A DNA stretch of 64,000 nucleotides from Isoptericola halotolerans (GTDB lineage: Bacteria; Actinomycetota; Actinomycetes; Actinomycetales; Cellulomonadaceae): positions 62,001 through 126,000 of the forward strand of contig NZ_PVTX01000006.1 of NCBI RefSeq assembly GCF_003003075.1, in the 5' to 3' direction. Every line of letters starts with the position of its first letter. Positions within the stretch are counted from its first letter, which is position 1. The translations under genes were made by a program, and so were the position numbers. Of the stretch, positions 52,982 to 64,000 are shown piece after piece. Below the pieces are notes generated by a model that saw nothing but the letters and a program-made list of their open reading frames with translations, did no database searches and had not been told where the DNA came from.

Positions 52982-55114
52982 TCAGGGGAGCGGTTGCGGC
53001 GTGCAGTTCGACAGCGCCACCTGGAACGTGGTCGGCGTGTCGGGCGTCTCGATCAGCACCCCGTCCTCCGGCGCGACCAGGTCGATCGTGTAGGTGTCGC
53101 CCGGGCCGAGATAGGTCGATCGCCACACGTCGGTCCCGCGCTCCCACTCGACGACCAGCACGTCACCGTCCAGGACCAGGATCTCGCAGCCGTCCGCCCA
53201 GGACCCCATGTACGGGTAGATCACCTCGCCGTCCAGAGACTTCACGATGCGCTCGTTCGATCCCTCCCGGGCGTTGTCGGGGTAGGCCGCCCAGTCGGGC
53301 CACGCCACGGCTCCGCCCACCCAGGGCGACCAGCCGTCGTCCTCGCAGCCCGGATAGTCCGTGCAGTGCCACAGCGCCAGCGTCGACTCCATGACGACCG
53401 CGCCGGCAGGGACGGACGGCGTGGGCTCGGGCTCGGGGGACGGTTCCGGGCCCGGGGTGGGAGCGTCGCCGGGTACGACGGCGAAGGTGAACGACGCACC
53501 GTCGTTCTGGAGGGAGACGACCTCGCCGGCTCGCAGCCCGGAGATCGAGTGCTGCTCGCCCGCCGCCAGATCCGCGATCTTGCGGTGGGTCCCGGTGGGC
53601 GTGCCGGCGTAGAGCGCGGCCGAACCGCTGGCGACGGTGACGGTGTCGCCGTTGGCCGACTCGGCCGGCAGGTAGATCGCGGCGGAGGTCGTGTACCCGT
53701 GCCGCGTCGACTGCGCACCCGTGGACTCGGGCCAGGTCGCGGCGTTGCCGGCGAGCTGCTGCCCCCACGGGCACGGGCTGCCCGTGCACGTCCACGTCAC
53801 CGGCTGGGAGGGCGTGGCCGCCGGGTCCGTCGGGGTGGGATCCGGGGTGGGTGTCGGCGTGGGTGTCGGCGTGGGTGTCGGCGTCGGGGTGGGATCCGGG
53901 GTGGGTTCTTCGCTGGGCTCGGGTGACGGTGAGGGCGTCGGCGTCGGGGTGGGTTCGCCACCGTCGGTGAGGGTGTAGGCGAAGGTGTTGTTGTCGTTCT
54001 GGACGGAGACGACGTGGCTGTCGGGCAGGTTGGTGATGGTGTAGCTGTCGCCGGTGGAGAGCTGGGCGAGGCGGCTGTGCGAGGTGTCGGTGGGGCCGGC
54101 GTAGACGGCTGCGTTGCCGTCGGTGATGGTGATGGTGGTGCCGTGGGCGGCGATGGCGGGCAGGTAGATGCCGGCGGACGTGGTGTAGCCGTAGCGGCTG
54201 GTGATGCCGTCGGGCCAGACGGCGGCGTTGCCGGTCAGCTGGGCGCCCCAGGGGCACGGGTCACCGGTGCAGGACCACGTGACCGGCGACGACGTGCCGG
54301 CCGCCGCGGACGGTTCGGGGCTGGGTTCGGGTATCGGCGGCGGTGTGGGATCCGGGCTGGGCTCGTCGCTGGGCTCGTCGCTGGGCTCGTCGCTGGGCTC
54401 CGGTGACGGCGACGGCGTCGGCGACGGGGTGGGCGTGGGCTCGTCGCTCGGCGTCGGTGAGGGCGTCGCGGTGGGCTCCGGCTCCGTCGGTGTGGAAGAC
54501 GGTGTCGGTGAGGGGGGCGGGGTGGGCTCGTCGCTCGGCGTCGGTGAGGGCGTCGGGGTGGGTTCCTGCTCCGTCGGGGTGGGTTCCGGGCTGGGTTCTT
54601 CGCTGGGTTCGGGTGACGGGGTGGGCGTCGGCGTCGGCGTCGGGCTGGGCTCCGGCGCCGTCGGCGTCGGGGTGGGTTCGCCACCGTCGGTGAGGGTGTA
54701 GGCGAAGGTGTTGTTGTCGTTCTGGACGGAGACGACGTGGCTGTCGGGCAGGTTGGTGATGGTGTAGCTGTCGCCGGTGGAGAGCTGGGCGAGGCGGCTG
54801 TGCGAGGTGTCGGTGGGGCCGGCGTAGACGGCTGCGTTGCCGATGGTGATGGTGATGGTGGTGCCGTGGGCGGCGATGGCGGGCAGGTAGATGCCGGCGG
54901 AGGTGGTGTAGCCGTAGCGGCTGGTGATGCCGTCGGGCCAGACGGCGGCGTTGCCGGTCAGCTGGGCGCCCCAGGGGCACGGGTCGCCGGTGCAGGACCA
55001 CGTGACCGGCGACGACGTGCCGGCCGTCTCTTCTGCGGCGGCAGGTGAGCTGAGCGCTGCCACGCCGACTGCCACGATCAGCGCATGCACGAGCCGAGAA
55101 CGCCATTTCGCCAT
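52982..55114 (-). CDS. Secreted repeat protein with W-C-PCPWG domains and Pro/Thr/Glu linkers
   Basis: A 710-residue protein with a signal peptide (about 1-27). It has three copies of a domain of roughly 115 residues marked by VTWSCTGDPCPWGAQLTGN, RYGYTTSAGIYLPA and HVVSVQNDN. They lie near residues 30-150, 271-392 and 440-555. A more distant C-terminal unit (ALWHCTDYPGC onward, about 580-710) follows. Long PTPTPSPEPS linkers separate them. Copies 1 and 2 are almost identical in DNA. I do not recognise the domain; two Cys per copy suggest a disulfide, and adhesion or glycan binding is only a guess. A minus-strand TACGGT (55126-55121) lies six bases before the ATG, giving a leaderless mRNA. 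Confidence 0.85.
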   Translation of the reverse strand: MAKWRSRLVHALIVAVGVAALSSPAAAEETAGTSSPVTWSCTGDPCPWGAQLTGNAAVWPDGITSRYGYTTSAGIYLPAIAAHGTTITITIGNAAVYAGPTDTSHSRLAQLSTGDSYTITNLPDSHVVSVQNDNNTFAYTLTDGGEPTPTPTAPEPSPTPTPTPTPSPEPSEEPSPEPTPTEQEPTPTPSPTPSDEPTPPPSPTPSSTPTEPEPTATPSPTPSDEPTPTPSPTPSPSPEPSDEPSDEPSDEPSPDPTPPPIPEPSPEPSAAAGTSSPVTWSCTGDPCPWGAQLTGNAAVWPDGITSRYGYTTSAGIYLPAIAAHGTTITITDGNAAVYAGPTDTSHSRLAQLSTGDSYTITNLPDSHVVSVQNDNNTFAYTLTDGGEPTPTPTPSPSPEPSEEPTPDPTPTPTPTPTPTPTPTPDPTPTDPAATPSQPVTWTCTGSPCPWGQQLAGNAATWPESTGAQSTRHGYTTSAAIYLPAESANGDTVTVASGSAALYAGTPTGTHRKIADLAAGEQHSISGLRAGEVVSLQNDGASFTFAVVPGDAPTPGPEPSPEPEPTPSVPAGAVVMESTLALWHCTDYPGCEDDGWSPWVGGAVAWPDWAAYPDNAREGSNERIVKSLDGEVIYPYMGSWADGCEILVLDGDVLVVEWERGTDVWRSTYLGPGDTYTIDLVAPEDGVLIETPDTPTTFQVALSNCTPQPLP
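53937..54303 (-). repeat. 367-bp direct repeat, unit encoding domain copy 2
   Basis: Aligned by eye with 54660-55026 at a constant offset of 723 bp. I count four substitutions in 367 bases. The offset is a multiple of three. Confidence 0.9.
54660..55026 (-). repeat. 367-bp direct repeat, unit encoding domain copy 1
   Basis: Partner of 53937-54303. The only amino-acid change I see is Ile to Asp in TITITIGNAAVYA versus TITITDGNAAVYA. Confidence 0.9.
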
Positions 55115-59772: not shown

Positions 59773-60942
59773 GTGGTACTTGTGAGACGACGGGCGTCGG
59801 CCGGTGCCGGTCGCCCGCTGCGGCCGCTGGCCCAGCTGCTCCTCGATGCTGCCTTCGACCGGTGCGCCACCTGGGACGACGGCCTCGCGGCGGTCGCCGG
59901 CGACGACGTGGTGGATGCGGGCTTCCTCCACAGGATCTCGCCGGCGATCGCCCGAGCGACGCGAGGGTGGACCGAGGTCTCGGACGGGTGGCGCGCGCCG
60001 TTGCGGGCGGTCCAGCACCGGCAGATGCTCAGGCACCTGCGAGCGCTCGAGGATCTCAAGGTCGTCGGTGCTGCCCTCGACCGAGCCGGCATCGCCTGGG
60101 TCGTGGTCAAGGGCGCGACGCTCGCCTCCGTCGTCTGGCCGCACGCGGACATGCGGGAGTACTACGACCTCGACCTGCTCGTCGAACCGGCGTCGTTCCG
60201 GGACGCGGTGGCGATCGTCGAGTCCACGGGCGGCCGTCTGCTCGACCGCAACTGGCCCGCGTTGAGCGCGTCGGGTCGCGGCGAGCTGGCCATGGTCGGG
60301 CGGCACGGCACACCCCTCGACCTGCACTGGCACCTGGCCGTGGCTCCGTCGGTGCGGCGTGCCTTTCCTCTCGACGTCGACGCGATGCTCGCACGGCGCC
60401 GCCACCACCATTTGTCGGTGGCGCCGATGCCGGTGCTCGACCCCGAAGACCAGGCGCTCCATGTGGCCGTGCACGCGGCCCAGGCGGGCGCCAACCGGTT
60501 GGTGTGGCTCGCCGACGTCTACTACGCGACGCGGGGCGTCGACTGGGAGGAGCTGGCACGACGATGCCGACGGGCGGACGCCACGGTGCCCGTGGCGCTC
60601 GTCGTCGACCGGGCCTACCGCGTCGCTGGTCGGGGCAGCGTCCCGTCCCGGGACCTGGCGCAGGCCGCCGACGGCGTCTGGGGCCGGCTCGCGCGATCCC
60701 GTGACGATCTGCTCCCGTTCCCTGGTCTGCCGGGGGACCGGAGGCTCGGGGGGAACATCTACGGGGCCGCCCGGCCCACGGTGCCGGCGAGCATGTGGAG
60801 GCTCGGGAAGGACCATGTCGCGGCCCGCTACCAGGGCTGGCGCCACCGCCACGGCCGGAACACGGTCCGCCCGTGGCAGCAGGACGTCCCTGACCCACAG
60901 GCTCGCGAGGCCTACTTCGCCACGGCCATGAGCGGAGGGTGA
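59773..60942 (+). CDS. Nucleotidyltransferase family protein (PF14907-like), RiPP-associated
   Basis: A protein of about 389 residues of the uncharacterised nucleotidyltransferase family often found in lasso-peptide loci. Signs are GIAWVVVKGATLASVVWPHADMREYYDLDLLVEP (acidic DLD), PLDLHWHLA and VHAAQAGANRLVWLADVYY. In paeninodin-type loci such proteins modify the phosphorylated peptide C-terminus. Two GTG codons (59773, 59782) are possible starts and neither has a ribosome site. It is followed at once by the exporter gene. Confidence 0.82.
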   Translation: MVLVRRRASAGAGRPLRPLAQLLLDAAFDRCATWDDGLAAVAGDDVVDAGFLHRISPAIARATRGWTEVSDGWRAPLRAVQHRQMLRHLRALEDLKVVGAALDRAGIAWVVVKGATLASVVWPHADMREYYDLDLLVEPASFRDAVAIVESTGGRLLDRNWPALSASGRGELAMVGRHGTPLDLHWHLAVAPSVRRAFPLDVDAMLARRRHHHLSVAPMPVLDPEDQALHVAVHAAQAGANRLVWLADVYYATRGVDWEELARRCRRADATVPVALVVDRAYRVAGRGSVPSRDLAQAADGVWGRLARSRDDLLPFPGLPGDRRLGGNIYGAARPTVPASMWRLGKDHVAARYQGWRHRHGRNTVRPWQQDVPDPQAREAYFATAMSGG

Positions 60943-62825
60943 TGAGCGGCGTCCGGTCCGCTACCTCCGGTCGTGACGGTCACGGCGGGCGGTCGTCGAC
61001 GTCCAGGGGCCGCCGGGTCGTCGAGCTGGTCCGCCGTTCGACCCGGCTCGTGTGGTCGTGCAGCCCGCGGCTCTTCGTGGCCCTGGTGGCGCTCCAGATC
61101 GTGGCGGCGGCCTCGCTCGGCGCGCAGGTGCTCGTGGTCGCCCAGGTCCTCGAGCGCATCCTCGACCTGACGGAAGCCGGGGTGACTCCGGGGCTCGTCT
61201 GGTCGGTCGCGGCCCTGGCCGGCCTGATGGCGCTGGGCGCACTGATCGCCGTGGCGCAGGGCAGCGTGCGGCGGCTCCTCGGCGAGCTCGTCGCCCGTTC
61301 GATGAACGAGAAGGTGCAGGACGTCGCCACCACGGTGCCGCTGCGCAACTTCGAGGACCCCGAGTTCTTCGAGAACCTCCAGCGCGTCCGCCAGAGCGCG
61401 ATGACCCGGCCGTTCCAGGTCACCCAGGGGTTGTTCACCGTCATCGGGACCGTGGCGTCGAGCGTCGCGGTCGGGGCCGCGCTCGTCGCGCTCTACCCGT
61501 GGCTGCTGCCGTTGCTGGCCGTCGGTGCCGTCCCGGTGCTGCTGACCAGCCGCCGCGAGAGTGCGTTGGAGTTCCGGTTCACGGTGGCGCAGACCACCAA
61601 CCAGCGCGAACGCACCTACGTCAACTACGTGCAGACCAACCGCGACGAGGCGAAGGAGATCCGCGCCTTCCAGGTCTCTCCGTGGCTACGGGACCGGTAC
61701 CGGGCGTTGTACGACAGCTACCTCGAGGCACTGCGCAAGCACCTCGGGCGCCGGTTGCGGCTGGCGACCCTCGGGCAGGTGCTCTCCGGCGTCGTCCTCG
61801 TGGGGACGCTGCTCCTGCTCGTGGTGCTCATCGCGAACGGGGAGGTGGGTGTCGCGGACGCCGGTGCCGCGATCGTCGGGATCCGGGCGCTGCAGGGACA
61901 GATCCAGGGCCTCGTCGGCGGGGTGCAGCAGATCCACGAGTCGGGGCTCTACCTCGACGACCTCGAGGCGTTCTTCCGGCACCACGCGGACGAGGCGACC
62001 GGTCCCGCAGGCGCCGACGACCTTCCCCCGTTCGACGGCGCGCGGATCGAGAAGGTGTCCTTCCGGTACCCGGGGTCCGGCACCGAGGCGTTGCAGGACG
62101 TGACCATCGAGGTCGGTCGCGGGGAGGTCGTGGCCGTCGTCGGTGAGAACGGGTCCGGCAAGACCACCGCGGCGAAGGTGCTGGCAGGGCTGTACGAGCC
62201 GGACGCCGGCGACGTCCTCTGGGGCGAGACGCCCTACGCCAAGCTCTCGCAGGACGATCTGCGCAGCCGGGTGGCGGTCATCTTCCAGGACTTCGTCCGG
62301 TACGCCTTCTCGGCCACGGAGAACATCGCCCTGGACCGGGCCGGTATCGACGCGCGCCAGGACCCGGCCGGCCGGGAGGACGTCCGAGCGGCCGCGCGGG
62401 CCGCGGACATCGACGGCGCCCTCTCGCGCCTGCCCCACGGGTATGCGACGCGGCTGTCGAGGATGTTCGACGACAGTGCGGACCTCTCGGGGGGGCAGTG
62501 GCAGCGGCTCGCGATCGCGCGAGCGTTCTACCGGGACGCGGACCTCGTCATCCTCGACGAACCGTCGGCGGCGCTCGACCCACGGGCCGAGCACGACCTG
62601 TTCAGCTCGTTGCGCACGACGCTGCGCGGCCGGTCCGCCCTGTTCATCTCCCACCGCTTCGCCACGGTGCGGGGCGCCGACCGCATCTACGTCATGGACT
62701 CGGGCCGGGTGGTCGAGTCGGGGACGCACACCGAGCTGATGGCCCGCCGCGGCCTGTATGCCGAGCTGTTCGAGCTTCAGGCCGGGGCGTACTTCCCCGA
62801 CGGCTGGTCCAGCTCGGCACCCTGA
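60942..62825 (+). CDS. ABC exporter (fused membrane and ATPase domains)
   Basis: A 627-residue half-transporter. Membrane segments span about residues 40-300, and the ATPase domain follows. Walker A is VGENGSGKTT near 400, the Q-loop is VIFQDFVRYAFSA, the signature is LSGGQWQRLAIARA, Walker B is VILDEPSAALD and the H-loop is FISHRFA. No peptidase domain is present. Position beside lasso-type maturation genes suggests export of the mature peptide. The ATG shares one base with the upstream stop and follows GGAGGG; a GTG at 60939 is an alternative. The last 49 bases overlap the convergent kinase gene. Confidence 0.92.
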   Translation: MSGVRSATSGRDGHGGRSSTSRGRRVVELVRRSTRLVWSCSPRLFVALVALQIVAAASLGAQVLVVAQVLERILDLTEAGVTPGLVWSVAALAGLMALGALIAVAQGSVRRLLGELVARSMNEKVQDVATTVPLRNFEDPEFFENLQRVRQSAMTRPFQVTQGLFTVIGTVASSVAVGAALVALYPWLLPLLAVGAVPVLLTSRRESALEFRFTVAQTTNQRERTYVNYVQTNRDEAKEIRAFQVSPWLRDRYRALYDSYLEALRKHLGRRLRLATLGQVLSGVVLVGTLLLLVVLIANGEVGVADAGAAIVGIRALQGQIQGLVGGVQQIHESGLYLDDLEAFFRHHADEATGPAGADDLPPFDGARIEKVSFRYPGSGTEALQDVTIEVGRGEVVAVVGENGSGKTTAAKVLAGLYEPDAGDVLWGETPYAKLSQDDLRSRVAVIFQDFVRYAFSATENIALDRAGIDARQDPAGREDVRAAARAADIDGALSRLPHGYATRLSRMFDDSADLSGGQWQRLAIARAFYRDADLVILDEPSAALDPRAEHDLFSSLRTTLRGRSALFISHRFATVRGADRIYVMDSGRVVESGTHTELMARRGLYAELFELQAGAYFPDGWSSSAP

Positions 62826-63754
62826 GCCCGCAGCGCCTCGACGAGCTCAGTCCCGAGGCGCTCGCGGAAGGGCGGTCCCCAGGGCACCCGCGCCGTGAAG
62901 ACGGGGACGCTCGCGGCGAGAGCAGAGACCCGGGCGAACTGCTGGGCGGTCACCCGCGGGTCCCGCCACCCGAGCAGCCGGGGGAACTGCATGAGGGCGA
63001 ACGCCGCCGCCCCGCCGCGGACCCGGTCGACACGCAGCTCCTCGCACGTGCGGTCGGGGAGCGGGACGACCAGCGCACCGACCGGACGAGCGTCCGTCGG
63101 CTCACGCCCCGGTGCCAGCAGGTCGCGGCCGTCAGCGCTGCGCCCCCGGCGCGGTGAGTCCGCACCGAACCGCTCGGTGAGGGTGTCCGCGCCCTTGCGC
63201 AGCCGCAGCTCCGTCGCCCCGAGCCGAGCGAGGTGGTCGTCGCCCGCCGGGTCGACGCGGAGCACGTCGTCGGTGACGAGCGCGCCGCCCTCGGCGCAGA
63301 GCAGCGCCGCCATCGTCGACTTGCCCATGCCGGACCGCCCGACGAACCCGACGACGTCGTCCTCGAGCTGCACGGCGCTCGCATGCAGGACCGTGTGCCC
63401 GCGCAGGTAGAGCTGGAACGCCATCTGCGCCCCGGACGCGAGCACGCGCGCCACACCGGAGTCCGCGCCCTCCACCGCGTGCAGCGTGACGTGCTCGAGG
63501 TCGGGTGTGAGCACGAAGTCGCAGGTCCCGTGGAACCGGAGCCGGTAGCCGTCGTCCGACCGGGTCGCCGTGTACCAGGGGCGTTCTGGGCTCGCGTACC
63601 GCAGGATGATCTCACCGGCCGGGTCTTCGTCGGTGTGGCTGCGGTCTGCGCCGCGGCGGAGGCGAACCGTGCCGTCGACCGTCACGGACTCCGGCCGCGA
63701 GGGCATCGGCACGTCGGAGTCGACGGACAGCCCGTACAGCGTGGTCGACGTCAT
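62777..63754 (-). CDS. HPr kinase-like protein, lasso-peptide kinase type
   Basis: A 325-residue protein. The C-terminal half resembles the HprK P-loop domain: VLHASAVQLEDDVVGFVGRSGMGKSTMAALL, then LVTDDVLRVDP. No CBS-like HprK N-terminus is present; instead there is a short beta-rich region. Such stand-alone HprK-like enzymes phosphorylate the C-terminal Ser of lasso precursors in paeninodin-type loci. The ATG at 63754 overlaps the upstream B2 stop (ATGA), so the two are co-translated. Confidence 0.85.
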   Translation of the reverse strand: MTSTTLYGLSVDSDVPMPSRPESVTVDGTVRLRRGADRSHTDEDPAGEIILRYASPERPWYTATRSDDGYRLRFHGTCDFVLTPDLEHVTLHAVEGADSGVARVLASGAQMAFQLYLRGHTVLHASAVQLEDDVVGFVGRSGMGKSTMAALLCAEGGALVTDDVLRVDPAGDDHLARLGATELRLRKGADTLTERFGADSPRRGRSADGRDLLAPGREPTDARPVGALVVPLPDRTCEELRVDRVRGGAAAFALMQFPRLLGWRDPRVTAQQFARVSALAASVPVFTARVPWGPPFRERLGTELVEALRAQGAELDQPSGKYAPA

Positions 63755-64000
63755 GCGGATCCCCCGGTGGTCTGGGCCTGCTCGAACTCGCGGTACAGCC
63801 AGGCGGCGCCCTCGGGGTCGAGGTCCGTGCCGTCGATCCGCAGCCAGGCGTGGGCCCTGATGTGGCCGCCGTCGTCGCGGCGGACGCCGAGCACGATCTG
63901 GGGGTCGCGAGAACGCAGGCTGTGGCCGAGCACGAGGGCGGTGCGCAGGCATGTCCCGTTCACCCACCGCAGACGCAGCACGCGGCGGTCGATGCGCAGC
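63751..64000 (-). CDS. Lasso-peptide B2 transglutaminase-like protease (5' end missing)
   Basis: The C-terminal 83 residues or so of a Transglut_core3 protein; the frame is open through the right edge. The catalytic triad is visible: Cys in NGTCLRTALVLGHSL, His in IRAHAWLRIDG and Asp in TDLDPEG. Such B2 proteins remove the leader peptide of lasso precursors after a PqqD-like B1 protein delivers it. B1, the asparagine-synthetase-like C protein and the precursor should lie at higher coordinates. Confidence 0.88.
   Translation of the reverse strand, partial: LRIDRRVLRLRWVNGTCLRTALVLGHSLRSRDPQIVLGVRRDDGGHIRAHAWLRIDGTDLDPEGAAWLYREFEQAQTTGGSA

What the first reader, a model, noticed from the sequence alone, without database searches (positions are those of the whole stretch)
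59773..64000. Edge of a paeninodin-type lasso-peptide locus in an actinobacterium
A PF14907-like nucleotidyltransferase, an ABC exporter, an HprK-like kinase and a B2 transglutaminase-like protease occur together. In known paeninodin-type loci the kinase phosphorylates the peptide C-terminus and the nucleotidyltransferase modifies it further; these are best known from Bacillales and Proteobacteria. The order here (N and exporter on one strand, kinase and B2 on the other, 3' ends overlapping) is unusual.
Basis: partly seen in the sequence, partly recalled or inferred. Interest (0 to 1): 0.75.

Follow-up and report, generated by a model that had tools for sequence, protein, structure and literature searches.

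The report
Actinobacterial phospho-lasso-peptide cluster with stripped-down cyclase
The genes at the window's end belong to a complete cluster that should make a knotted (lasso) peptide with a phosphate-capped tail, one of a large actinobacterial group whose ring-closing enzyme lacks a domain that other lasso cyclases keep.

Summary
Beyond base 64000 of the same contig lie the expected genes: an asparagine-synthetase-type cyclase (C), a 42-aa precursor (A) ending in Ser, and a divergent PqqD-like B1. With N, ABC exporter, K and B2 this is a complete lasso-peptide cluster. The predicted core EAQFDIDYDGDLFRGDRHGGGGVS has Asp9 placed for the ring, and its last residue is its only Ser/Thr. K keeps the lasso-kinase motif. 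'Paeninodin-type' fits function, not membership: the leader is YxxP (paeninodins are near-invariantly WxxP and Bacillota-restricted, PMC13381572), the host is Isoptericola-like, and C is only 383 aa, without the usual N-terminal glutaminase-like region. Short cyclases form one clade (100/100); 77 of the 79 best loci are Actinomycetota. In 95 surveyed lasso loci, strong-K loci have Ser-ending precursors and K-less loci almost never do. So: a new variant of a known kind, an actinobacterial phospho-lasso lineage with a minimal cyclase and, in this branch, a predicted Glu1 ring residue. Nothing is shown biochemically. I did not find this group described, but my searches cover only open papers.

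The parts
59773..60942 (+). N: PF14907 nucleotidyltransferase-fold protein (start codon uncertain; GTG 59773 or an in-frame start upstream)
   Evidence: PF14907 E 1.3e-30; invariant K113-G114, R128, D132-x-D134, D183-x-H185 in 37 aligned N proteins; model pLDDT 93.6, best VIA match an NTase (MenT1) Z 13.2, ANT(2'')-Ia Z 11.4
60939..62825 (+). D: ABC exporter (MsbA-like, fused membrane and ATPase domains), start overlapping the stop of N
   Evidence: PF00005 E 3.5e-29, PF00664 sub-threshold; MsbA_lipidA model 255 bits, below its cut-off of 602
62777..63754 (-). K: HprK-like peptide kinase; 3' end overlaps the exporter gene by 49 bp
   Evidence: HprK-type hits below cut-off; H124, G139, S141, G142, G144, K145, S146, D162, D163 invariant in 14 of 14 aligned
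63751..64000 (-). B2: lasso leader peptidase, cut by the window edge (whole gene L002 8751-9200 = extended window numbering 63751-64200). The rest of the cluster lies beyond the window: C, 383-aa cyclase, L002 9197-10348 (-); A, precursor MYEAPSIREVGTVADLTL | EAQFDIDYDGDLFRGDRHGGGGVS, L002 10420-10548 (-); B1, PqqD-like, L002 10748-11008 (+); extended numbering = L002 + 55000
   Evidence: B2: NF033537 46.7 bits over cut-off 33; TCL (Cys) and AHAW (His) shared by the 15 rows of the alignment (catalytic roles recalled). C: PF00733 E 3.2e-17 from residue 49, SGGRDSS at residue 56, tree. A: NF033521 24.5 bits over cut-off 19, orthologs, the only ORF with the leader motif in 75 kb, 0.05 expected in simulated sequence. 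B1: PF05402 E 3.5e-14

Best explanation
This is a complete lasso-peptide cluster of an actinobacterial lineage. Proposed sequence of events: B1 binds the YEAPSI motif of the precursor leader; K phosphorylates the C-terminal Ser of the precursor; N, a nucleotidyltransferase-fold enzyme, adds a further group to that phosphate (a hexose by analogy with PsmN, or a nucleotide or sugar-phosphate); B2 cuts after Thr(-2)-Leu(-1); C adenylates Asp9 and lets the alpha-amine of Glu1 attack it, closing a nine-residue ring round the tail; the ABC protein exports the product. C does this with the synthetase domain alone, because an internal peptide amine replaces ammonia and no glutaminase domain is needed. 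Shown here: the genes, their families, conserved active sites, the precursor, the single short-cyclase clade and the link between K and a terminal Ser. Inferred: every chemical step, their order, ring size and the nature of the N modification.
For: All seven genes are present, with coupled starts and stops (C/B2 and B2/K overlap by 4 bp; N/ABC overlap). Precursor and B2 exceed lasso-specific NCBIfam cut-offs. Core residue 9 is Asp in six of six closest precursors (own, L022-L026; two of them identical); over the wider group an acid is at position 9 in 61 of 79 and at 7-9 in 68 of 79 precursor-like ORFs of strong-K loci. The C-terminal Ser is the only Ser/Thr of the core. In the survey, 14 of 17 strong-K loci with a precursor have only Ser-ending candidates (the other 3 carry extra spurious ORFs or a TTG start; their real ones end in Ser) against 1 of 35 K-less loci. 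Kinase motif invariant, matching the motif tested by mutation in BsfK (PMC10368454, passages). The model of the 79%-identical C of L039 (pLDDT 94.6) overlays residues ~156-490 of beta-lactam synthetase and 173-506 of AsnB, i.e. the synthetase domain.
Against: No peptide, mass or enzyme activity is known. Nothing proves the phosphorylation site: BsfK phosphorylates Ser3 of a core with a C-terminal Asp (PMC10368454). Of 79 strong-K precursor-like ORFs 8 end in Ser-Arg and 10 in something else, and of 22 in loci with weak or no K 12 still end in Ser, as does the one K-less short-C survey locus with a precursor (L255). Observed N-terminal ring residues are given as Gly, Cys, Ser, Ala and, lately, Asn (PMC12670498, passages); Glu1 is untested, and Asp7 is a rival acceptor in this peptide. 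The domain-only cyclase scores just 12.5 bits (E 0.037) against the lasso-cyclase model NF033535. Survey rows are related (many Jiangella-like), so the p-value of 5e-9 is too small.
Confidence: 0.82

Rival explanations
1. A true member of the Bacillota paeninodin/pseudomycoidin subfamily, carried into actinobacteria by horizontal transfer.
For: Same gene set A, B1, B2, C, K, N, D and a C-terminal Ser; the review passages describe the same K and N functions (PMC9266682, PMC8498205).
Against: YxxP leader instead of near-invariant WxxP; a clade of short cyclases spread over many actinobacterial families; gene order with divergent B1 and convergent K/D. No Bacillota sequence was in my trees, so a deep common origin of K or N is untested.
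Confidence: 0.1
2. The short C makes an isopeptide ring but no threaded knot, or another amide, so the product is a branched-cyclic phosphopeptide and not a lasso.
For: C lacks a region that other lasso cyclases keep; 11 of 79 precursor-like ORFs of strong-K loci have no acid at 7-9, some with the first acid at 10 or 13.
Against: Leader, B1, B2, Thr(-2) and acid at 7-9 in 68 of 79 are classical lasso features.
Confidence: 0.12
3. K phosphorylates a residue other than the C-terminal Ser, or K acts on a carrier or regulator, and the terminal Ser is kept for another reason.
For: BsfK phosphorylates core Ser3 (PMC10368454); 12 of 22 precursor-like ORFs in short-C loci with weak or no K still end in Ser.
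Against: The window's core has no other Ser or Thr; strong association of K with terminal Ser.
Confidence: 0.1

Closest known systems
Pseudomycoidin cluster (psm, Bacillus pseudomycoides), phosphoglycosylated lasso peptide
   Same: K and N beside the lasso genes; C-terminal Ser; expected (poly)phosphate and group added by N (passages in PMC9266682 and PMC8498205)
   Different: Actinobacterial host, domain-only cyclase, divergent B1 and convergent K/D, predicted Glu1 (that the Bacillus cyclase is full-length is recalled, not tested)
Paeninodin and related Bacillota phospho-lassos
   Same: HprK-like kinase with His-Lys-Asp-Asp motif and a C-terminal Ser substrate (PMC9266682, passages)
   Different: WxxP leader and paeninodin RRE clade, stated to be restricted to Bacillota (PMC13381572, passages)
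Bsf lasso cluster (Bradymonas sediminis)
   Same: K plus N in a lasso cluster outside Firmicutes
   Different: Kinase acts on core Ser3, leader has Ile(-2), core ends in Asp (PMC10368454, passages)
Canonical actinobacterial lasso clusters (39 long-C loci without K or N)
   Same: B2, and YxxP leader with Thr in those where a precursor was recognised (26 of 39)
   Different: At least 225 residues lie before the SGGxDS motif of C; no K or N; precursors end in varied residues
Linear polyphosphorylated peptides (LPP), Bacillota
   Same: RRE, HprK-like kinase, NTP transferase, MsbA-like exporter (PMC13381572, section 6)
   Different: LPP has a signal-peptidase-like leader peptidase and no cyclase; this locus has B2 and C
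Beta-lactam and carbapenam synthetases
   Same: Asparagine-synthetase fold that closes a ring with an internal amine (function recalled; fold)
   Different: Those keep an N-terminal glutaminase-like domain (recalled; the match starts at their residue ~156); this C does not have it

Membership tests
Lasso peptide biosynthetic cluster | Precursor with YxxPx[LIV] leader, Thr(-2) and Asp/Glu at core 7-9 | tested here: met
   NF033521 over cut-off; T-L|E..., Asp7 and Asp9
Lasso peptide biosynthetic cluster | B1 (PqqD-like RRE) and B2 (transglutaminase-like peptidase) | tested here: met
   PF05402 and NF033537 over cut-offs
Lasso peptide biosynthetic cluster | Asparagine-synthetase-like cyclase | tested here: met
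   PF00733 63.7 bits, cut-off 21; but NF033535 only 12.5 bits
Lasso peptide biosynthetic cluster | Threaded lariat product | not testable with these tools
   needs purified product
Paeninodin subfamily (as drawn in PMC13381572) | WxxP leader motif, nearly invariant | tested here: not met
   leader is YEAP; definition from passages
Paeninodin subfamily (as drawn in PMC13381572) | Found in Bacillota | tested here: not met
   same genus as loci titled Isoptericola; Actinomycetota
Paeninodin subfamily (as drawn in PMC13381572) | RRE falls in the paeninodin clade | not tested
   no Bacillota RRE sequences in my trees
[quoted passage not shown]
   invariant in 14 of 14
Phosphorylated lasso peptides (C-terminal Ser type) | Precursor ends in Ser | tested here: met
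Phosphorylated lasso peptides (C-terminal Ser type) | Phosphate on that Ser in the product | not testable with these tools
   needs mass spectrometry
Lasso cyclases with N-terminal glutaminase-like region | About 200 residues before the synthetase domain | tested here: not met
   SGGRDSS at residue 56; 70 of 92 short-type rows have at most 150 residues between the upstream stop and the motif; 45 of 45 long ones have 225 or more

The most novel reading that the evidence does not exclude
Actinomycetota hold their own, widespread lineage of phosphorylated (and probably further capped) lasso peptides, separate from the paeninodins, whose cyclases have lost the glutaminase-like region altogether. 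It would show that this region is not needed for lasso closure. The Isoptericola branch would give lasso peptides with Glu as ring residue 1, perhaps the first, and sister branches (first acid at 10 or 13, or ending in Ser-Arg) may hold rings or tails of a new kind.
Probability: 0.5. Interest if true: 0.65.

Novelty: new variant of a known kind. Interest (0 to 1): 0.55.

Why it matters
In the open papers whose passages I read, kinase-bearing lasso clusters are described for Firmicutes, Proteobacteria and Bradymonadales; this puts a large group in actinobacteria. A 383-aa cyclase is a simpler enzyme for studying lasso folding (no lasso cyclase showed among the solved structures in my fold search), and it asks directly whether the glutaminase-like region of other lasso cyclases does anything. 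The set also gives natural variants in ring residue 1, ring acceptor and tail end for testing K and N.

Tried and rejected
A second cyclase that could lend a glutaminase domain: PF00733 finds two places in the genome, this C and a 41-position match of 21 bits elsewhere; no NF033535 match in the own genome. An N-terminal domain upstream of C: rejected, since the precursor gene ends 71 bp before C and the nearest relative has only 98 residues from stop to motif. The 16 loci kept from the NF033535 search were looked at as canonical controls; their short flanks (about 1.5 kb) hold no B1, B2 or K, so I took them for asparagine-synthase-like genes and used B2 loci instead. Plasmid searches with A, C and N: no match for A and C, one distant archaeal match for N. 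phmmer of C and K in PDB: nothing useful; no lasso cyclase shows in the fold search, which does not exclude one. Horizontal origin from Bacillota could not be tested, as I had no Bacillota comparators. The A-B1 intergenic region was aligned in six loci and not pursued. Pfam found a glutaminase signature in only 2 of 8 long cyclases, both below cut-off, so 'glutaminase-like' for that region rests on length and recalled knowledge; the absence of it in 53 of 53 short ones is biased, because those sequences had been trimmed to the synthetase profile.

Selections: the tree used 32 short rows picked by hand, all 45 long rows and 16 asparagine-synthase rows out of 171 gathered (two false rows, L170_c0 and L196_c0, dropped). 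Survey: 97 B2 places, 95 fetched (left out: the window's own and one in G479 at a contig end). C was not seen in 32 of the 95 (L170's false motif counted among them). The four weak-K loci with a precursor (three end in Ser, one in Gly) are in neither side of the Fisher test. The genome scan used one pattern (VxFSGGRDSS) and kept the best 80 of 130 relatives, so the spread beyond those is unseen. Cores: 113 rows, 103 distinct; some 'other' rows are spurious ORFs and were left in the counts.

Papers: search listings; passages of PMC9266682, PMC10368454, PMC8498205, PMC13352647, PMC10425560 and PMC7533575; passages, abstract and section 6 of PMC13381572; passages and section 7 of PMC12670498. The primary paeninodin and pseudomycoidin papers are not held and were not read. 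That I did not find this group described rests only on those searches (chiefly); subscription papers and data supplements were not searched.
Full report
What was checked. The window is bases 62001-126000 of contig 6 of its genome, so the sequence past 64000 could be read (L002; extended window coordinate = L002 + 55000). The nearest loci are titled Isoptericola (uncultured Isoptericola 79% and strain AK164 73-74% identical in C), so the host is taken to be an Isoptericola or close kin.

Anatomy (extended window numbering). On +: N (59773-60942) and an ABC exporter (60939-62825). On -, read leftwards: A (65420-65548), C (64197-65348), B2 (63751-64200), K (62777-63754). On + again, divergent from A: B1 (65748-66008). 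C/B2 and B2/K overlap by 4 bp. K and the exporter overlap by 49 bp at their 3' ends, as they do in the two closest relatives. Families: PF14907 for N, PF00005 for the exporter, PF13471 and NF033537 for B2, PF00733 for C, PF05402 for B1, NF033521 for the precursor leader. K has only sub-threshold HprK hits, but across 14 kinases of the group the residues H124, G139, S141, G142, G144, K145, S146, D162 and D163 never vary. This is the motif reported for lasso kinases, with most of its residues tested by mutation in BsfK (PMC10368454 passages; PMC9266682 passages).

Gene order. In the family, 14 of 14 loci with both genes have K and the exporter on opposite strands, 13 convergent and 10 overlapping. 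In the wider group the order varies: at least seven loci have both on one strand, and B1 often runs with C.

The precursor. MYEAPSIREVGTVADLTL | EAQFDIDYDGDLFRGDRHGGGGVS. The cut is placed by the Thr(-2) rule. The core is 24 residues; its only Ser or Thr is the last residue. In the six closest precursors (own, L022-L026; L025 and L026 are identical) Asp9 is kept in six, Asp7 in five and Glu1 in six. The leader motif with Thr occurs once in the 75 kb around, against 0.05 expected in simulated sequence. PMC12670498 (passages) gives Gly, Cys, Ser and Ala as examples of observed first residues and adds Asn; Glu1 lies outside that list, if the cut is right.

The group. A search with C in 200 genomes of the family found 18 with a relative, own included. 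A pattern scan of the species-genome collection gave 130 relatives of the C alignment, of which the best 80 (79 distinct loci) were kept: 77 are Actinomycetota by title, two are metagenome bins labelled Gemmatimonadetes and Acidobacteriota. Of 68 distinct loci with at least 7 kb on both sides of C (17 more left out for short flanks, two for an incomplete C), 58 have a strong K, 52 N, 62 B1, 56 B2, 50 the exporter and 39 all five (thresholds mine).

The short cyclase. C begins 55 residues before its SGGRDSS motif. Of 92 short-type rows, 70 have at most 150 residues from the upstream stop to the motif, which leaves no room for a glutaminase-like domain of some 200 residues. Twelve, the window's own included, have more than 200; I take this to be GC-rich frames that happen to stay open, and in the window the precursor gene lies in that stretch and the nearest relative has 98. 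The 45 long cyclases of the survey all have 225 or more. In a tree of 93 synthetase domains the 32 short ones form one group with 100/100 support, in all 200 bootstrap trees. The predicted model of the 79%-identical relative (pLDDT 94.6) covers the synthetase half of beta-lactam synthetase, carbapenam synthetase and AsnB. In this genome PF00733 finds no other full-length match.

K and the terminal Ser. A B2 family search in 296 genomes of the class gave 97 places in 75 genomes; I fetched 95. By: 18 loci with short C (16 strong K, 1 weak K, 1 none), 45 with long C (39 without K or N, 5 weak K with N, 1 strong K with N), 32 where no C was recognised. Among loci with a recognised precursor, 14 of 17 with strong K have only Ser-ending candidates. 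The other 3 (L240, L243, L249) have extra spurious ORFs or a TTG start, and their real precursors end in Ser. Only 1 of 35 K-less loci has this, and that one (L255) carries a short C. Four weak-K loci (three Ser, one Gly) stand outside the test. Fisher p 5e-9, too small because rows are related. Over the 79 precursor-like ORFs of strong-K loci, 61 end in Ser, 8 in Ser-Arg, 10 otherwise; with weak or no K, 12 of 22 end in Ser, which shows that the link is not clean within the short-C group, where several loci have weak kinase-like hits.

N. Thirty-seven N proteins share K113-G114, R128, D132-x-D134 and D183-x-H185. The model (pLDDT 93.6) matches nucleotidyltransferases: MenT1 Z 13.2 (rmsd 2.9, 175 aligned), ANT(2'')-Ia Z 11.4; FKRP, a sugar-alcohol-phosphate transferase (function recalled), Z 6.9. 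Pseudomycoidin's PsmN puts one or two hexoses on the phosphate in E. coli, with direct or indirect action open (PMC9266682). So N most likely acts on the phosphate, but what it transfers is open.

How it compares. A review places kinase-bearing lasso clusters in Firmicutes and Proteobacteria and N in Firmicutes (PMC8498205 passages); another paper calls such extra genes characteristic of Firmicutes (PMC7533575 passages); a third says that paeninodins are restricted to Bacillota, with near-invariant WxxP leaders (PMC13381572 passages). [quoted passage not shown] I therefore file this as a lasso cluster (testable features met), of the C-terminal-Ser phospho kind in its way of working, not as a member of the paeninodin subfamily. 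Whether K and N of this group share a late ancestor with the Bacillota ones was not tested.

Verdict. The finding is real and its key prediction is met. Its wider interest is the actinobacterial group with a cyclase reduced to the synthetase domain, the Glu1 core and the K-Ser link. All chemistry is inferred.

Noticed in passing
L033, L036, L074, L099, L101, L108, L112: Eight precursor-like ORFs in strong-K loci end in Ser-Arg, so Ser is last but one, and all eight have an acid at core position 10. Either a terminal Arg is trimmed, or K takes an inner Ser, or the ring or the cut is unusual.
   Followed up: partly
L029 10959-11138, L032 9827-10012, L034 9793-9972, L037 760-939: A subgroup has 41-43 residue cores with a CKxGxGxDN pattern and no Asp/Glu at 7-9 (first acid after position 4 at 13), yet ends in Ser beside a short cyclase.
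   Followed up: partly
L029 (same place as L092, Cellulosimicrobium arenosum): One cluster with two short cyclases and two precursors, but single K, N, B1 and B2; each cyclase follows its own precursor.
   Followed up: no
   Followed up: no
L080 5410-6059 (- strand): Six tiny clustered precursor-like ORFs (29-41 aa) with YxxP leaders, five ending in Asn, about 3 kb from a short cyclase.
   Followed up: no
L104 and L113: Short cyclases in bins labelled Gemmatimonadetes and Acidobacteriota; transfer or wrong binning.
   Followed up: no
window 52982-55114 (-): 710-aa ORF with two near-copies and one looser copy of a ~100-residue segment joined by long Pro/Thr/Glu-rich linkers, likely a surface or secreted protein.
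   Followed up: no
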